In this document: in pieces, positions 1-54,560 of the stretch
Position numbering within the stretch: position 1 is the first letter of the stretch
How the letters are laid out: the number at the start of each line of letters is the position of its first letter
Source: Natrinema versiforme
GTDB lineage: Archaea; Halobacteriota; Halobacteria; Halobacteriales; Natrialbaceae
Assembly (NCBI RefSeq): GCF_005576615.1
Contig: NZ_CP040331.1
Location: forward strand, 372,001 to 436,000
DNA: 64,000 nucleotides
Direction of reading: 5' to 3'
Position numbers and translations under genes: made by a program
Notes under the pieces: generated by a model
Databases searched by the model: none
The model's input: only the letters and a program-made list of their open reading frames with translations
Told to the model about the DNA's origin: nothing

Positions 1-16
1 GCGCAGTCGGGCGCGA

Positions 17-216
17 CGTGTGACGTTATCACACGCAGCGCTATCAATCTCGTGGCCCGCGGGTTCACTCGAAATCTGGTGTGTTGAAAACGCCACGAAC
101 GGCGCAGGGGAGTGCAAATGCCCGCTCGCGGCGTACTGGGGATGTCGCGCATGTGGAGACGCGACAGGCGAACGGATGCGTGCTGGCCTGTTGAATCTCG
201 TGCCAACAAGGATTGG
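17..216 (+). ncRNA. Candidate structured ncRNA, copy A
   Basis: This stretch has no convincing gene and is homologous to 20361-20538. The shared core runs from 41 to 216. Visible helices are a 7-bp stem at 143-149/160-166 (TGTCGCG/CGCGACA), a GAGTG/CGCTC stem starting near 109, a GGTG/CGCC stem around the conserved TGTTGAAAA loop near 85, and an AATCT/GGATT stem near 194-215. Compared with copy B, paired positions change together or to wobble pairs while the 143-166 loop differs completely, which is what a conserved RNA structure predicts. A further hairpin, CGTGTGA/TCACACG, lies at 17-35. Strand is assigned from the GNRA-like and A-rich loops and is not certain. Identity is unknown; a HEARO/omega-RNA-type element is one possibility. 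The copy ends about 30 nt before an inverted repeat upstream of parA. Confidence 0.6.
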
Positions 217-245: not shown

Positions 246-289
246 AGTAATACTGTCCAAGCATACTGGGTTGTTTGAACAGTATTACT
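246..289. promoter_or_regulatory. 11-bp inverted repeat upstream of parA
   Basis: AGTAATACTGT at 246-256 is perfectly mirrored by ACAGTATTACT at 279-289, with a 22-bp spacer. It ends 14 nt before the TATA-like box of the parA-like gene. The position and dyad symmetry fit an operator for the partition operon or a small centromere-like site. I saw no further copies in the window, so a multi-copy parS array is not supported. Confidence 0.5.
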
Positions 290-301
290 GGCTTGTCTGC
301 C

Positions 302-310
302 GAGTATTTA
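302..310 (+). promoter_or_regulatory. TATA-like box of the parA operon
   Basis: The AT-rich stretch GTATTTAT lies 29-37 nt upstream of the ATG at 339. This is the spacing of an archaeal TATA box for a leaderless or nearly leaderless transcript, and it supports ATG 339 over the upstream GTG at 312. Confidence 0.4.
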
Positions 311-338
311 TGTGGGGTTAGAACGACACTCTGCCTGT

Positions 339-1205
339 ATGATACCATACACGGTGTACTCGGAGGCCGGCGGCGTTGGCAAGACCACAATCTCCGGGGG
401 ATTACTCCGAGCGCACGTCGAACGAGGGCAGAAAACGTTGGGAATCGATATGGACCCACAAGACGGCGGGTTGACCCACCACTACGGCCTTGACGAGGAT
501 AAAGCGAACCCGGATGCAGACAACCTCGCGTTGCACATGATCGACCGCGGAAAAGGACCACTCGAGGACTTAATTCGCACAAGCGAGGGAATCGATATCA
601 TTCCGAGCCACAATATGCTCGGCAACCTCCGGGATCTACTCAAGAAGGCCGCTGACCTGCAGGATGAAATGGGTGCGGGAGACAACGAGTTTGTCAAAGA
701 GAAACGGTTGCGCGAAGTACTGGTTGAGGCGGGTATACCCGAGAAATACGATGTCATTGTGATTGACCCGCCAGCGTCGCAAGGGCAACATCTCTACAAT
801 TCCGTCTACGCGACGGGCAACCTCCTCATCCCGTTCGAACCATCCCCGAAGGGCGAGCAAAGCGTGAAAGGTCTCCGAGACGTTATCAACGGACTCGAGG
901 ACGAACTCGGAGATATTGACGTGGGCGTGATCGGCACCGTCCCGAACAATTTCAGTGGGACGAATATCAATCAGAAATATCTCGATATACTCGAGGATGA
1001 AGAACTCCCGATCGCGCCCGTGTCGATCGGCGAACGCGGGTCCATGCTCGGCGAAGCCTGGGACAATCAGGTATCGATCTACGAGTTGGCAGAGAACGAT
1101 GCGTACCGCGACCTCCGAGACTACGAGCAACCGACCCTCGAGAAATTCGATGAACTAGCGGAGTACATCACCGAACAGTTCGCAGCAACCGAGGCTACAG
1201 CATGA
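339..1205 (+). CDS. ParA/Soj-like partition ATPase
   Basis: This 288-aa protein belongs to the ParA/MinD-type P-loop ATPases that segregate plasmids or chromosomes by ATP-dependent dimerisation on DNA. A Walker A motif (EAGGVGKTT) lies at residues 9-17, the A' region (GIDMDPQDGG) near residue 35, and Walker B (DVIVIDPP) near residue 140. The usual signature lysine of the deviant Walker A (KGGVGKT) is replaced by alanine here, which is atypical. ATG 339 is preferred over GTG 312 because it places the P-loop at the usual distance from the N-terminus and fits the TATA box at 302-310. The gene overlaps the next one by 4 nt (ATGA), so the two are probably translated together. It suggests that this region maintains a plasmid-like replicon. 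Confidence 0.88.
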   Translation: MIPYTVYSEAGGVGKTTISGGLLRAHVERGQKTLGIDMDPQDGGLTHHYGLDEDKANPDADNLALHMIDRGKGPLEDLIRTSEGIDIIPSHNMLGNLRDLLKKAADLQDEMGAGDNEFVKEKRLREVLVEAGIPEKYDVIVIDPPASQGQHLYNSVYATGNLLIPFEPSPKGEQSVKGLRDVINGLEDELGDIDVGVIGTVPNNFSGTNINQKYLDILEDEELPIAPVSIGERGSMLGEAWDNQVSIYELAENDAYRDLRDYEQPTLEKFDELAEYITEQFAATEATA

Positions 1206-1618
1206 AAACAGGCACGACCGATCCGTTTGCGAACGACGACGAGGACGAACAGACAGAACAAACAGACAGTAGTGACAGTCAGACTGACGAGTCAGACTCG
1301 ACCGAACCGTCCGACAGTACGACGGACCAATCCGGCGAGAATCAGTCGCCGTCTGGCAGTAATACCAGACAGTTTGACCGGTCAGACTTACCAAGAATGG
1401 TCGGCCGAGAGAAAGTCAAAGATGATCGCGAGGACGTGCATCAACTGTTCGTCTACGATGACACCGACACGAAAGAGGAGGAGGCCCGGTATGATCTGAA
1501 ACAGCGGTTCGACGACAAGCTCTACAAGCTCGACGCCCGGGAAGCGATCTATCTGGCTGGGATGCAGAACTTAGACGATGCCGAAGAGATCCTCCGCGAG
1601 TGGGGACAGGATTTCTGA
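1202..1618 (+). CDS. Small acidic partner of the ParA-like protein
   Basis: The product has 138 aa. Residues 1-60 are a low-complexity acidic Asp/Ser/Thr/Gln tract, and residues 70-138 look helical and charged (for example REKVKDDREDVHQLFVYDD and the terminal EEILREWGQDF). The start codon overlaps the parA stop (ATGA at 1202-1205), so the pair is an operon. By position it takes the place of ParB, but no ParB N-terminal motif or helix-turn-helix is evident. Archaeal plasmids often pair ParA with an unrelated small protein; that this one binds DNA or ParA is inference. The acidic tract is extreme even for a haloarchaeal protein. Confidence 0.75.
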   Translation: MKTGTTDPFANDDEDEQTEQTDSSDSQTDESDSTEPSDSTTDQSGENQSPSGSNTRQFDRSDLPRMVGREKVKDDREDVHQLFVYDDTDTKEEEARYDLKQRFDDKLYKLDAREAIYLAGMQNLDDAEEILREWGQDF

Positions 1619-19407: not shown

Positions 19408-19556
19408 GGCGACGGTGGCGCACCCTTGGGCATGCGCTTGAACAGCGGGACGCTGAACGTGAACGGAGGCTATTCTCCTGGCTCAACTGAGGCCAGAACG
19501 GGAGTCCACGCTGAATCCCACCGCTTTAGCGGTGGGTAGCTCAAGACCCCGCTGTG
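19408..19556 (+). mobile_element. 3' end of an IS200/IS605-type element (tnpB tail and right end)
   Basis: The last 43 codons of a haloarchaeal TnpB are readable at 19408-19539: [20 protein letters not shown], then [17 protein letters not shown] and a stop. This conserved tail overlaps the element's right end, which ends with the perfect hairpin CCCACCGC-TTTA-GCGGTGGG at 19517-19536. In TnpB systems this 3' region is also the scaffold of the guide (omega) RNA, and the guide lies just outside the right end. All of TnpB upstream of the tail is missing, so the element is dead as a transposon. Confidence 0.7.
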
Positions 19557-19600: not shown

Positions 19601-19987
19601 TTGACACCTCCGGACCTTTCGGGAGGCAACGACCGAATTATCTCTTTCGAAGCCAGCGAAGAGGACTCGATCGAATACCAGCCGACCGAGGACACACTCG
19701 AGGACGCGGCCGCGTCCCCACACGAGTACAACGTCTACACCGAGCGCCGCGTCGAGGTCGGTCCCGACCGACTCGAGGAGTGGGCGCGAGCGAACTACGA
19801 CGACGAGACGCGCGTCAAAATCACGATGAAACACGGAACGGACGTGTTCACTCGCGGCGAGCACGTCACGACCGAGTGCCCTGTCTGTGGCGAGCAACCG
19901 ACGCTTGTGAAAGGTTTTGGTGACGACCGCGAATGGGTCTATATGGGAGACTATCGGAGTTGCACGCTCGAGGTGACCGACCGATGA
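19601..19987 (+). CDS. Small zinc-finger hypothetical protein
   Basis: The 128-aa product has a C-terminal CPVCG motif near residue 95 as half of a zinc site, and a mixed alpha/beta body (VEVGPDRLEEWARANYDDET). Only a TTG at 19601 is available as a start near the expected N-terminus. The gene begins 45 nt after the IS200/IS605 right end, which may have removed its own start and promoter. It overlaps the next gene by 4 nt (ATGA at 19984-19987), so the two form an operon. Function unknown. Confidence 0.55.
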   Translation: MTPPDLSGGNDRIISFEASEEDSIEYQPTEDTLEDAAASPHEYNVYTERRVEVGPDRLEEWARANYDDETRVKITMKHGTDVFTRGEHVTTECPVCGEQPTLVKGFGDDREWVYMGDYRSCTLEVTDR

Positions 19988-20211
19988 GTAGCCAGATCCC
20001 CGACGGCAAGTACGTCAATCTCTACTGTCCCGAATGTCAGGCGCACCCGGACGATATCGAGGTCGTATTCGACCGCGAGGACTGGTCGGTGCTTCGCCAT
20101 TCCTACTGTCTCACGTCGCTCAACGCGACGATCGACGCCGACCAACCAGTGACGGCGAGTCACCCGCCGAACGGGGAGTTCGATGACCGATTGTTTCGAA
20201 CCGACGACTAA
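19984..20211 (+). CDS. Small zinc-finger hypothetical protein (75 aa)
   Basis: The 75-aa product starts at the ATGA overlap with the previous gene. It contains CPEC near residue 15 and a further Cys in RHSYCLTSL near residue 42, so a single zinc site is possible. The adjacent pair of small CxxC proteins is of a kind often found on haloarchaeal plasmids. No function assigned. Confidence 0.55.
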   Translation: MSSQIPDGKYVNLYCPECQAHPDDIEVVFDREDWSVLRHSYCLTSLNATIDADQPVTASHPPNGEFDDRLFRTDD

Positions 20212-20315
20212 CTGCTTTTCATTCGGCACGAGGGATGTCCGCAAAACCACGAGGAAACGTACCCGGCGCAGCGTGGGCAACGACCGACGCCGGGCGGGTC
20301 TGAGACGATGATCGG

Positions 20316-20690
20316 ATGCCGCGCACGAGAACGCGGCATGCCACTCTATCACATCCGTCCCTATCAACTTCATGGCCCGCAGTTTCACTCGAAACTCGGT
20401 GTGTTGAAAACACCACGAGCGGCGCGGGGGAGTGAAAACGCCCACTCGCGGCGTACTGGGGAGAGTGTCGCGCGGTCGGAACGCGACAGGTGAATGAATG
20501 CGTGCTGGCCTGTTGAGTCCCGTGCCTACAAGGGTTGGTGGGTGGTCGGAAGGAACACTCAACCCACAAGGGGCCCGACGACGGGAGGGTAGCCCGCCGC
20601 CGGACAGGGCCGAGAAGGTGGGCCAAGCGGTAGATGTGGTGCCTATCAGTCTGCGTCGCGTGTGGGGTACGCGACATAGAACATGTTCGC
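20316..20690 (+). ncRNA. Candidate structured ncRNA, copy B
   Basis: The core at 20361-20538 is homologous to 41-216 at the left edge. Helices: TGTCGCG/CGCGACA at 20466-20472/20482-20488 with an unrelated loop; GAGTG/CACTC around an AAAACGCC loop; GGTG/CACC around TGTTGAAAA; AGTCC/GGGTT near 20514-20536. A strong 8-bp hairpin ATGCCGCG/CGCGGCAT precedes the core at 20316-20339. Unlike copy A, structured GC-rich sequence continues to about 20690, including complementary GTGGGT/ACCCAC segments and CGCGT/ACGCG at its end. No ORF of substance fits. No IsrB/IscB-like or reverse-transcriptase gene follows, so a stand-alone RNA is suggested. Family unknown; HEARO/omega-RNA-like is a hypothesis. Confidence 0.6.
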
Positions 20691-20820
20691 TCGGATCTAT
20701 ATCAACCCGGTCCCGATTCTAAGTTCCTTGGAATCGTCAGTAGTCACCACAACCCACAGATGCACTGTCCCATGTGTCTGCATGCTGACTATTGAGTAGT
20801 GACAGGCCGGACTGCTATGT

Positions 20821-20997
20821 GTGGACGAACTTGATCCGACTGGCTTTGAAGACCCGGAACAGTTCTGTGATGCGATCGCCGAATTAATCGATGCACTCGA
20901 GGACGCCGATCTCCTGACCGAGGACAAAGCAGCGGATCTACGATCTGAAATCTACCAGTCACTTGAGTTCCAAGACCCGTCTAACGGCACCGTCTAG
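20821..20997 (+). CDS. Short acidic hypothetical protein, end altered by a MITE
   Basis: A GTG-started frame of 58 codons has clear haloarchaeal character (FEDPEQFCDAIAELIDALED, then LLTEDKAADLRSEIYQSLEF). The last four codons (GTV-stop) come from the terminal repeat of the MITE at 20986, so the insertion fixed the present C-terminus. Function unknown; start uncertain. Confidence 0.4.
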   Translation: MDELDPTGFEDPEQFCDAIAELIDALEDADLLTEDKAADLRSEIYQSLEFQDPSNGTV

Positions 20998-21093
20998 TTA
21001 GCGCAGTTTGAGGAACGAGCAGGTCTGCGAGCATTGTTTCAAACCAACTCTACGACCTGCTTACTTCTCAAACCGCGCTAACTAGACGGTGCC
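20986..21093. mobile_element. 108-bp MITE derived from the IS6-family element at 29266
   Basis: Perfect 19-bp terminal inverted repeats begin GGCACCGTCTAGTTAGCGC and close at 21093. Its interior (AGCAGGTCTGCGAGCAT ... CGACCTGCTTACTTCTCAAA) matches the right end of the IS at 29266-30009. It carries no coding sequence and could have moved only by using that element's transposase. It ends the small gene at 20821. Confidence 0.75.
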
Positions 21094-21109
21094 GAGATAG
21101 CCATCTTAT

Positions 21110-29265: not shown

Positions 29266-30009
29266 GGCACCGTCTAGTTCTTCACCTCATTAATCGGTAT
29301 CTTTCCACTGAGAGCTTGGTGCGGTCTCTGACGGTTGTAGTAATGCATAAACTGTTCAAGCCACTCGCGGATGCTCGACCGACTGCCCCACCCACGAGTT
29401 ATGAAAGCGGTCGATCCGCATTTTGAGGGTGTGAAACCACTTTTCGATGAGGTTTCGGTCGGTATAGTTGACCCGACCGCTCAGTCCGACTCGAGAGAGG
29501 GCGGTCCGATAGCCGAATTGATCGACGAGAAACTCAGCTTCGGAAAGATCGTGTTTCTCGCGGAGTTTCTGCAGAAACGCAGCCGCCGGATCAGTGCCAT
29601 GTCGACTAAACAATTCAACGTCAAGAATCAACTTTGACTCGATGTCTATTGCAGTATACAGCCAAGACCACTCCGTTGATCTTGACAGCGGTTTCGTCGA
29701 CAGCGACCCACGACGGCGATGCCGTCGGCGGGTCGCGTCCGCTGTCAGCCAGCCGATGAACCCAGTTCCAGACCGCTCCGTGAGAGCGTTCAACGCCTAA
29801 TTCAGCAAGAATCGTTGTTGTCTCCCGAAGCGAACAACCGGTTTGGTGGAGGCGGACGGCGAACGCCCTGACGGGCGTCGCCGTCCGCTCGTTCTCCCAA
29901 GATTCTTCTAAATCCGCCTCATAGCTCTCGCTGAGCAGGTCTGCGAGCATCAACCAACTCAACATCACGACCTGCTTACTTCTCAAACTGGCTCAACTAG
30001 ACAGTACCG
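29266..30009 (-). mobile_element. IS6-family insertion sequence (second type)
   Basis: The element is 744 bp. Its imperfect ends are GGCACCGTCTAGTT on the left and GGTACTGTCTAGTT read inward from 30009. It is the parent type of the MITE at 20986-21093. It differs in sequence from the IS6 copies at 11828 and 45472. Confidence 0.75.
29285..29986 (-). pseudogene. IS6-family transposase, two frameshifts
   Basis: The N-terminal part (from 29986) carries VRLHQTGCSLRETTTILAEL and VAVDETAVKING (first Asp). It shifts frame near 29690, where EWSWLYTAIDIESKLILDV begins. The second segment has AEFLVDQFGYRTALSRVGL (second Asp) and RNLIEKWFHTLKMR (Glu). A further shift near 29370 leaves only a trace of the C-terminus. 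The order of the DDE residues is intact but the gene is broken in at least two places, so it is inactive unless repaired. Confidence 0.75.
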
Positions 30010-40195: not shown

Positions 40196-40979
40196 ACCTC
40201 GAGATACGGGCCTGAGTACTTAAAATACACTATGAGTAGATATTTAAATACGTCTGCTTTATTGAACCGCGTACATCATAGGAACACTGTTAGATGGCTT
40301 ATTTAAGGATGGAGATTGTGGCGGTCAGCATAAGTTGGCAGAACTCGCGCTGCCATGTGCGAGAGTAGGCAGTAGAGTTAAATCGGCACTAAATAGCCGA
40401 GAAGAAGAGTTCGACCATTAAGCACCGACCGTAAGCCTGCTGTCCAACCGGGCGTTGTGTACGTGATCGGCGTAGTTGAACAGTCGGTGATGAATTAGTG
40501 GCCGGACGCCCTCTGAACGGAGGGTGTCTCAAAGCGACTAGTCGTCAATACTCTTTGTCCCCGGCGAAACTCTCCAATTCTCTGGACCCCGCAGTGGGAT
40601 TCGACGGTCAGTGTACCGAACAGTTTAGATGGAGGGTGTTACACGAGTCTATATCGATCAACGCAACGCCATGGTTTTGAACGTGTGTATGTGGCGATCC
40701 GAGTAGAGTTGATAGTGCTTCGAGGTTACCTTAGAACATAACATTGATTGTGCCACGAGAGTCCGGATCGCAGATGCGTGCAGACACCCGCAACAGGCTG
40801 CGCCACATTGGCATAGGAACCAGCTCGAACTACCGATACAGTACCGAGGAGAGGGAAACGCCGTACAGTACAAACGAAGGAATCTCCTGCATTTCTCAAA
40901 TATACCCGAATCTCAGTCATACCCACATACTGGGTTATCCGGTAGTATTTTATAATTCTGGGTACAATGTCAAATTGGA
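40196..40979. other. Long intergenic region upstream of dapA-like gene 1
   Basis: No gene is supported in these 784 bases. The segment 40290-40700 looks like old mobile-element debris without an assignable family; it includes a CCCTC/GAGGG hairpin near 40508-40524. The 3' end contains the promoter of the next gene, a TATTTTATAA box at 40946-40955 about 30 nt before its ATG. Confidence 0.4.
40946..40955 (+). promoter_or_regulatory. TATA box of dapA-like gene 1
   Basis: TATTTTATAA lies 25-34 nt before ATG 40980, consistent with a leaderless mRNA. The same box and flanks (GTAGTATTTTAT ... CAAATTGGAATG) recur upstream of the paralogue at 54312 (box at 54339-54346), so the promoters were duplicated with the genes. 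Confidence 0.6.
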
Positions 40980-41864
40980 ATGGAGCAAGCATTTAGTGGT
41001 ATCTTCGCACCAGTATTAACGCCAATCAAAGACGGGTCCGTAGCGACCGAAATCATTTCTGAGTCAGTCAAATTCACACAAGCATGCGGTTGTCATGGAC
41101 TTATCGCTGCGGGAACTGGCGTTCAAGAGACGGTATCATTAACGGTCGACGAACGGAAAAAGATTATCTCAGGGGCGATCAAAGCAGCCGACGAGCGTCC
41201 CGTTTTGGCCGGGGTTTCTCACCCGTCCACACACATTACCCTCGAACTTGCTGCGTACGCGGAGACCGCCGGAGCGGACGGCATCCTCGCAATGCCTCCC
41301 TGGGGACTTTCGCCAGGTAACGATGCTGTGATATCCTACTATGAATCCCTCGTCGAAGCGACAGATCTCCCAATCCTCCTCTATAACAACCCGACAGTGA
41401 CCGTAGACCTTTCCACCGAAACGATGCGGCGCATTGCGCGCCTCGAGAACGTGGAGTACGTGAAAGAAACGTCTCGTAACTGGAAGAAACTCGCGTGGCT
41501 CATCGAACACGTTGACAACGCCGGACTGGCATCAGTGTTCGGTACGATGGATGTTCTCCTGCCCGTAATGGAAGCAGGCGGTCACGGTGCAGTGATTCCA
41601 GCACCCGCGAGTACGCCAGCGATGAGAGTCTATGAAGCATTCCAGAACGGAGACAGGGAAGCTGCTGGAGAAGCCCAGCGCGCGTTCGTTGATTTCCCTC
41701 CCGACGAGGTGAACACCAGCCTGATGCCCGCGGTCAAGGCCGCTGCGAACCTCTCTGGCGTCCCGCTCGGGCCACCTCGTCCGCCCTATCAGCCAGTTTC
41801 AGACGAGGGGCAGACAGCGATACAGCAATGGCTCGAACGTGAGGACGTCCCATCGCTAGAGTAA
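40980..41864 (+). CDS. DHDPS/DapA-family aldolase or dehydratase 1
   Basis: The 294-aa protein is a TIM-barrel lyase of the dihydrodipicolinate synthase superfamily. The Schiff-base lysine is in VEYVKETS (near residue 161), the conserved tyrosine in LLYNNP (near 135), and the GTGVQETVSL loop near residue 45 replaces the GTTGE of true DapA, so the substrate is not pyruvate/aspartate semialdehyde with certainty. Family members include 2-keto-3-deoxy sugar-acid dehydratases and aldolases. The neighbours (IclR, phosphotriesterase-like hydrolase, aldehyde dehydrogenase) favour a catabolic role. The 3' half is nearly identical to the paralogue at 53428-54312. Confidence 0.85.
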   Translation: MEQAFSGIFAPVLTPIKDGSVATEIISESVKFTQACGCHGLIAAGTGVQETVSLTVDERKKIISGAIKAADERPVLAGVSHPSTHITLELAAYAETAGADGILAMPPWGLSPGNDAVISYYESLVEATDLPILLYNNPTVTVDLSTETMRRIARLENVEYVKETSRNWKKLAWLIEHVDNAGLASVFGTMDVLLPVMEAGGHGAVIPAPASTPAMRVYEAFQNGDREAAGEAQRAFVDFPPDEVNTSLMPAVKAAANLSGVPLGPPRPPYQPVSDEGQTAIQQWLEREDVPSLE

Positions 41865-42117
41865 GGGTATCTTCGGCTGGCGGGGACGTCGCTCTTCTAA
41901 TCACCTTCTCATAGCAGACGTTCTTTCATCACGTAACCTATCATCGATGGCAGCTAGATCATTCCCGTCCCAGCGTGGCATTTCGATACCTCACGCTGTT
42001 TCCTCTCTCCAACAGACTCTCCTGGATAACCTCCTCGTCCCCGAGAAAGCTAGGACTTTGCATATCAATAGGTCCAACACCAGTAGATTAACGTATATCG
42101 TTGAATATCGATCAGTC

Positions 42118-53339: not shown

Positions 53340-53427
53340 CCGCCATCGACGATAGGTTACGTGATAAAAGAACGTCCGTTAGGAAAAGATAATTAGGAGA
53401 GCGATGTCCCGCCGGCCGGAGATACCC

Positions 53428-54312
53428 TTACTCTAGCAATGGGACGTCCTCACGTTCGAGCCATTGCTGTATCGCTGTCCGTCCCTCGTCTGAAACTGGC
53501 TGGTAGGGCGACCGAGGTGGCCCGAGCGGGACGCCAGAGAGGTTCGCAGCGGCCTTGACCGCGGGCATCAGGCTGGTGTTCACTTCGTCGGGAGGGAAAT
53601 CAACGAACGCGCGCTGGGCTTCTCCAGCAGCTTCCCTGTCTCCGTTCTGGAATGCTTCATAGACTCTCATCGCTGGCGTACTCGCGGGTGCTGGAATCAC
53701 TGCACCGTGACCGCCTGCTTCCATTACGGGCAGGAGAACATCCATCGTACCGAACACTGATGCCAGTCCGGCGTTGTCAACGTGTTCGATGAGCCACGCG
53801 AGTTTCTTCCAGTTACGAGACGTTTCTTTCACGTACTCCACGTTCTCGAGGCGCGCAATGCGCCGCATCGTTTCGGTGGAAAGGTCTACGGTCACTGTCG
53901 GGTTGTTATAGAGGAGGATTGGGAGGTCCGTCGACTCGGTGATAGACTCATAGTACGACACCACAGCATCGTCGTCTGGGGTGAGCCCCCACGGGGGCAT
54001 CGCGAGGATACCATCCGCATTAGCAGCCTCCGCATGCGTTGCGAGTTCGGTGGCAACATGCTGTGACGGATGGGAAATGCCGACCAGAACAGGCCTGTCG
54101 TCGGTCGCTTCGATCGTTGCCGAGACGAGTTCTTTCCGTTCGTCGACCGTTAGCGATACCGTCTCTTGAACGCCGGTTCCCGCAGCGATAAGTCCATGAC
54201 AACCACACGCTTGCGTGAATTCGACTGAATCGGAGACACGTTCGATCGCCACGGAACCATCTTCAATCGGTGTTAACACTGGCGAAAGAATACCACTGAG
54301 TGCTTGATTCAT
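53428..54312 (-). CDS. DHDPS/DapA-family aldolase or dehydratase 2
   Basis: The 294-aa paralogue of the protein at 40980-41864 keeps the same motifs: GTGVQETVSL, LLYNNP, and the Schiff-base lysine in VEYVKETS. The N-terminal third differs at many residues (ERVSDSVEF versus EIISESVKF), but from LLYNNP to near the end the two are almost identical, also at the DNA level. The start ATG 54312 and TATA box at 54339-54346 match those of copy 1. It is divergent from an aldehyde dehydrogenase gene, an arrangement repeated in the island. Confidence 0.85.
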   Translation of the reverse strand: MNQALSGILSPVLTPIEDGSVAIERVSDSVEFTQACGCHGLIAAGTGVQETVSLTVDERKELVSATIEATDDRPVLVGISHPSQHVATELATHAEAANADGILAMPPWGLTPDDDAVVSYYESITESTDLPILLYNNPTVTVDLSTETMRRIARLENVEYVKETSRNWKKLAWLIEHVDNAGLASVFGTMDVLLPVMEAGGHGAVIPAPASTPAMRVYEAFQNGDREAAGEAQRAFVDFPPDEVNTSLMPAVKAAANLSGVPLGPPRSPYQPVSDEGRTAIQQWLEREDVPLLE

Positions 54313-54338
54313 TCCAATTTGAAATTGTGTACAGATAC

Positions 54339-54346
54339 ATAAAATA
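54339..54346 (-). promoter_or_regulatory. TATA box of dapA-like gene 2
   Basis: TATTTTAT read on the minus strand lies 27-34 nt before ATG 54312, with the same surroundings as the box of gene 1. Confidence 0.6.
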
Positions 54347-54560
54347 CTATCGGATGTGTAGATGCATTGGCATACGTGGCGGCCAGAACATGATTCACTC
54401 GCGCCCCGTATCCCATACGCGAGTGAACTACGGGCCCTGCTCGCAGTCTTGGCTGTATGGCCCCGAAAATCACCGACACATTCGGATTGAGCGAGACAGT
54501 GAGTATGCTGAAACGTGGTTCACCGGTATCGTTAAACGTGTGGAGGTGAGACTCAACCAC

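What the first reader, a model, noticed from the sequence alone, without database searches (positions are those of the whole stretch)
41..216. Duplicated structured RNA with compensatory base changes (copy A at 41-216, copy B at 20361-20538)
The two copies share a core of about 175 nt that is not protein coding. Several helices keep pairing although their sequences differ: GGTG/CGCC versus GGTG/CACC, GAGTG/CGCTC versus GAGTG/CACTC, and AATCT/GGATT versus AGTCC/GGGTT, while the 7-bp TGTCGCG/CGCGACA stem carries totally different loops. Both are preceded by a strong hairpin of unrelated sequence (17-35 and 20316-20339). The pattern is that of an RNA under structural selection on a mobile replicon. 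HEARO/IsrB-type omega RNA without its protein is a hypothesis; copy B continues with structured sequence to about 20690.
Basis: partly seen in the sequence, partly recalled or inferred. Interest (0 to 1): 0.82.

Follow-up and report, generated by a model that had tools for sequence, protein, structure and literature searches.

The report
Structured element beside archaeal plasmid genes
Two related non-coding stretches on this salt-loving archaeon's large plasmid-like replicon belong to an apparently undescribed family of conserved fold-back modules that carry a replication-initiator-like binding box and often sit just upstream of the plasmid-segregation gene parA, so they are probably part of the machinery that keeps such plasmids in the cell.

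Summary
The duplication is real: A (42-216) and B (20362-20538) are 84.5% identical and non-coding. But A and B alone show no compensatory change (0 of 27 pairs changed on both sides, 7 on one). About 27 copies with this core, plus 11 loci with only the 3' module M4, turn up in Natrialbaceae, nearly all Natrinema. Across ten copies secondary structure is conserved (column-shuffle z about -5.5 on + and -7 on -; flanking Zn-ribbon coding control about -0.5), with 6 doubly changed pairs. Rfam has no match; HEARO is not supported. The element is modular: hairpin E0, GTCGCG hairpins H1/H2, stem P2, M2, and M4. It holds a box resembling the ORBs around the orc1/cdc6 gene 4 kb upstream of A; scanning those ORBs over the window, the best three hits are A's box, B's box and one just before B. 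It often lies directly upstream of parA on the same strand (14 of 38 loci, 16 counting two across a circular junction; chance about 1%). M4's helix varies by G-U rather than A-C (57 to 11), pointing to RNA; the A/B core shows no such preference. Best reading: a composite plasmid replication/partition control element, transcribed at least at M4. Function untested.

The parts
1..17 (+). copy A, H1 hairpin (GTCGCGC..GCGCGAC), its first three bases cut off by the window edge
42..58 (+). copy A, conserved TATCAATCTCGTGGCCC block
64..83 (+). copy A, ORB-like box TTCACTCGAAATCTGGTGTG; best hit in the window to a matrix from ORBs around an orc1/cdc6 gene
90..134 (.). copy A, stem P2 (arms 90-102 and 122-134)
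143..166 (.). copy A, H2 hairpin TGTCGCG..CGCGACA
187..216 (+). copy A, M2 motif CCTGTTGAATCTCGTGCCAACAAGGATTGG
246..289 (.). inverted repeat AGTAATACTGT..ACAGTATTACT before parA; this ParA type's likely operator or centromere, not part of the shared element
   Evidence: function inferred
305..312 (+). TATA-like TATTTATG about 30 nt before parA ATG 339, so parA is probably leaderless
   Evidence: sequence; inference
339..1205 (+). parA (open frame from 312; probable start 339)
1202..1618 (+). small gene after parA, probable partition partner
   Evidence: c92, conserved in L193; function inferred
19984..20211 (+). small Cys-rich (Zn-ribbon-like) gene; relatives precede the element at about eleven loci
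20218..20237 (+). second ORB-like box, 6 nt after that gene's stop codon
20262..20309 (.). copy B, E0 hairpin module
20317..20338 (.). copy B, H1 hairpin
20362..20538 (.). copy B, core as matched by covariance model R1 (178 bits)
20384..20403 (+). copy B, ORB-like box
20539..20736 (+). copy B, M3 module: third GTCGCG hairpin 20653-20675, TATATCAACCC 20698-20708, hairpin 20713-20736; shared with L004 and L005 (loci of L210 and L206)
20821..20997 (+). small ORF after B; a relative sits between M3 and M4 in locus L206
   Evidence: coding status inferred

Best explanation
A and B are members of a modular plasmid-maintenance control element of Natrialbaceae. Shown: the modules recur in a fixed order (ORB-like box, E0, H1, TATCAAC block, often a second ORB-like box, P2, H2, M2, M4), their secondary structure is conserved, and the element often stands directly upstream of parA genes of several types, each with its own repeats next to parA. 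Inferred: an Orc1/Cdc6-type initiator binds the box; at least M4 is transcribed on the parA strand and folds, ending just before the parA operator; the element thereby regulates replication or partition (copy number, initiator titration, or keeping the partition site free of readthrough). A sits in such a locus, about 4 kb from an orc1/cdc6 gene; B is a copy no longer linked to parA.
For: Homologues. Structure beyond shuffles: 64, 75, 91, with a coding control near zero at similar identity for the Zn-ribbon gene. ORB-like boxes are the top three window hits (17.9, 14.7, 14.4; next 6.5) of a matrix built outside the window. ParA within 1.3 kb downstream on the same strand at 14 of 38 loci against 1.06% of random positions in the same loci; 7 of the 27 core loci, P about 1e-8; two more across the junction of circular plasmids. 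parA-type-specific repeats with shared M4: 67. Wobble in M4: G-U 57, A-C 11. orc1/cdc6 and ParA identity: 87.
Against: Most parA genes of A's own type lack the element, and more than half of the element loci lack a parA within 1.3 kb. For core and E0 the wobble counts are neutral or lean to the minus strand and the minus strand folds at least as well (90, 91), so one + strand RNA covering everything is doubtful. No transcript data. The matrix comes from nine ORBs of one locus, and the element boxes in A and B score well below real ORBs there (17.9 or less against 23-35).
Confidence: 0.45

Rival explanations
1. A purely DNA-level site: inverted repeats plus ORB-like boxes act as an initiator-titrating, origin-accessory or centromere-accessory region, and the fold-back symmetry is for proteins or cruciforms, not RNA.
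For: GTCGCG stems are almost invariant in sequence; core wobble G-U 17 against A-C 19; ORB-like boxes; an ORB-rich region downstream of cdc6E is proposed to titrate Cdc6E in Haloarcula hispanica (PMC3936714).
Against: M4 prefers G-U on one strand (57 to 11), which DNA symmetry does not predict; P2 leans to A-C.
Confidence: 0.25
2. M4, and perhaps the whole element, is a 3' UTR or terminator-like insulator that ends upstream transcripts before the parA operator and centromere.
For: M4 follows the stop codon of small ORFs in L203 and L206, ends in a long stem followed by short T-rich sequence, and precedes the parA repeats.
Against: T runs are short; conserved unpaired motifs (GAAAG, TCTGCCGG) and the ORB-like boxes are more than a terminator needs.
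Confidence: 0.15
3. Degenerate repeats spread by recombination among megaplasmids without present function.
For: Mosaic module order, truncated and tandem copies, insertions, B without parA.
Against: Structure kept beyond shuffles while sequence diverges to about 67% identity, and recurrent placement before different parA types.
Confidence: 0.1
4. HEARO/IsrB-type omega RNA, or another known ncRNA class, without its protein.
For: Only general resemblance: a structured non-coding repeat on a mobile replicon.
Against: No Rfam match; recurrent neighbours are maintenance genes.
Confidence: 0.02

Closest known systems
Haloarchaeal origin recognition boxes and the oriC2D titration region of Haloarcula hispanica (PMC3936714)
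   Same: ORB-like boxes beside plasmid or chromosome maintenance genes; a non-origin ORB-rich region that controls replication
   Different: Here one or two degenerate boxes are embedded in conserved stem-loop modules and tied to parA rather than directly to cdc6
Plasmid par loci with parA and upstream iterons (centromere/operator)
   Same: Position directly upstream of parA; A's parA follows an inverted repeat
   Different: The iterons differ by ParA type and lie next to parA; the structured element is shared across types and lies further upstream
Candidate structured RNAs found by comparative genomics, and large ornate RNAs such as HEARO
   Same: Multi-stem non-coding element with conserved structure on mobile replicons
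   Different: No Rfam match, no partner protein of that kind, strand and transcription unproven

Membership tests
HEARO (RF02033) / omega RNA | Match to the Rfam covariance model | tested here: not met
   no match in window or homologues
HEARO (RF02033) / omega RNA | Adjacent IscB/IsrB-type protein gene | tested here: inconclusive
   No such product among annotated neighbours of the Natrinema copies, and neighbours recurring at the loci are ParA, Cys-rich protein and Orc1/Cdc6; no dedicated IscB/IsrB search was run
Haloarchaeal ORB | Similarity to ORBs of an orc1/cdc6 locus (palindromic core plus G-string) | tested here: inconclusive
   Boxes are the top window hits but weaker than real ORBs, and the G-string is partly degenerate in A and B cores
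Haloarchaeal ORB | Binding by Orc1/Cdc6 | not testable with these tools
   needs a binding assay
Plasmid par locus component | Recurrent position directly upstream of parA | tested here: met
   14 of 38 loci against about 1% expected, but not obligatory
Structured non-coding RNA | Secondary structure conserved beyond chance, with pair-preserving changes | tested here: met
   but related sequences can inflate shuffle tests
Structured non-coding RNA | Transcribed | not testable with these tools
   no RNA-seq held

The most novel reading that the evidence does not exclude
A new haloarchaeal family of plasmid-maintenance RNAs whose gene carries initiator (Orc1/Cdc6) binding boxes and is shared as an interchangeable module by par systems of different types, coupling replication control to partition.
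Probability: 0.22. Interest if true: 0.78.

Novelty: new variant of a known kind. Interest (0 to 1): 0.55.

Why it matters
How archaeal megaplasmids coordinate replication and partition is poorly known, and I know of no structured RNA described as part of a par locus. A conserved module placed before different types of parA gene, with an ORB-like box inside, gives a concrete, deletable candidate for such coordination.

Tried and rejected
HEARO and all other Rfam families: no match. P1 (GGTGT/ACACC) as a general stem: absent from the short-type copies, where the same letters are better read as the G-string of an ORB-like box. A parA 5' leader or riboswitch: unlikely, since a TATA-like box lies about 30 nt before the parA ATG and type-specific repeats lie between. 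Protein coding: stops and frame-breaking indels across copies. Phages and viral contigs: no blastn match and no pattern match. One genome-contig scan was wasted on a loose pattern whose hits are bacterial chance matches. Deciding the strand by folding energy: inconclusive. Weak model hits outside Natrialbaceae were not accepted.

Full report
Observation. Copies A and B are real, 84.5% identical over 174 aligned positions, and the only two hits in the genome. They are not coding. The claim of compensatory changes between them fails: 0 of 27 pairs changed on both sides, 7 on one side.

Family. blastn found related DNA in 12 of 125 family genomes, several with up to five copies. A covariance model from ten copies (R1) gave about 27 real loci, all in Natrialbaceae, mostly Natrinema and mostly on plasmids or secondary contigs. 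Reading them shows a longer modular element: ORB-like box, E0 hairpin, H1 GTCGCG hairpin, TATCAAC/CTTCGTGGCCC block, often a second ORB-like box, stem P2, H2 hairpin, M2, then M3 and/or M4. P2-H2-M2 is optional: some loci have the box directly before M4 (L232, L223). Small ORFs are found between M2/M3 and M4 in L203 and L206. A model of M4 (R2) adds eleven loci without the core. No phage or viral hit was found.

Structure. On ten core sequences, 88.9% of cells pair, 6 pairs have changes on both sides (1 of 500 shuffles reaches this) and sliding the partners destroys pairing. RNAalifold energies against column shuffles: core z -5.4 (+) and -8.8 (-), E0/H1 -4.8 and -7.9, trimmed M4 -6.9 and -6.6; rerun, the core gave -5.5 and -7.0 while the neighbouring Cys-rich gene, at 72% identity, gave -0.4 and -0.7 (the other two coding controls align poorly and are less telling). 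M4 with twenty sequences: 91% paired, ten cells with changes on both sides (1 of 500 shuffles), and own inner-hairpin arms pair better than swapped arms (P 0.0002). These tests do not fully remove relatedness.

Strand. G-U on + against A-C on + (G-U on -): M4 57 to 11, hence RNA on the parA strand; core 17 to 19; E0/H1 6 to 13; P2 over sixteen sequences 8 to 21, or 1 to 15 in its inner eight pairs. Single-sequence folding energies do not separate the strands. So M4 looks like + strand RNA; the A/B core may be DNA-level, minus strand, or both.

Context. ParA lies within 1.3 kb downstream on the same strand at 14 of 38 loci, against 1.06% of random positions in the same 20-kb loci (7 of 27 core loci, P about 1e-8; the eleven M4-only loci are not in that P-value). 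L205 and L206 reach a ParA across the junction of circular plasmids. The ParAs fall into at least five types, each with its own repeats next to the gene, whereas M4 is shared. For A, a TATA-like TATTTATG at 305-312 lies about 30 nt before the parA ATG at 339, so parA is probably leaderless. Most parA genes closest to A's lack the element. A small Cys-rich gene precedes the element at about eleven loci, including B. An orc1/cdc6 gene lies about 4 kb upstream of A.

ORB-like box. A matrix from nine ORBs around that orc1/cdc6 gene, all outside the window, scores 64-83 (17.9), 20384-20403 (14.7) and 20218-20237 (14.4) as the best three sites in the window; the next is 6.5. The ORBs at that locus score 23-35, so the boxes in A and B are degenerate or of another specificity; some other copies have stronger boxes (L189 29.8, L198 25.0). 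An ORB-rich region downstream of cdc6E, proposed to titrate the initiator, is described in Haloarcula hispanica (PMC3936714).

Known families. No Rfam family matches. The literature searches made here found no description; that is a limited library.

Conclusion. A and B are copies of a modular, structured maintenance element. That it is conserved, structured and linked to parA is shown; initiator binding, transcription and the effect on replication or partition are inferred.

Noticed in passing
19513-19545: Hairpin CCCACCGCTTTAGCGGTGGG resembling the right end of an IS200/IS605 TnpB element, with no tnpB recognised next to it.
   Followed up: no
20985-21094: 41-nt inverted repeat (88%) just after the small ORF behind copy B; part of it recurs at 29955-30009, so probably a MITE or IS remnant that may have separated B from its downstream part.
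   Followed up: no
40937-41884 and 53408-54355: 948-nt inverted repeat (88%) containing 294-aa ORFs, probably two transposase copies.
   Followed up: no
L226 (G000:C3:233279-233417, minus): A solo M4 in the same replicon, also directly upstream of a parA of another type.
   Followed up: partly
upstream of parA in L221-L237: Distinct iteron arrays per ParA type, with a shared palindrome TTACTCGTGAGTAA between M4 and the iterons in several loci.
   Followed up: partly
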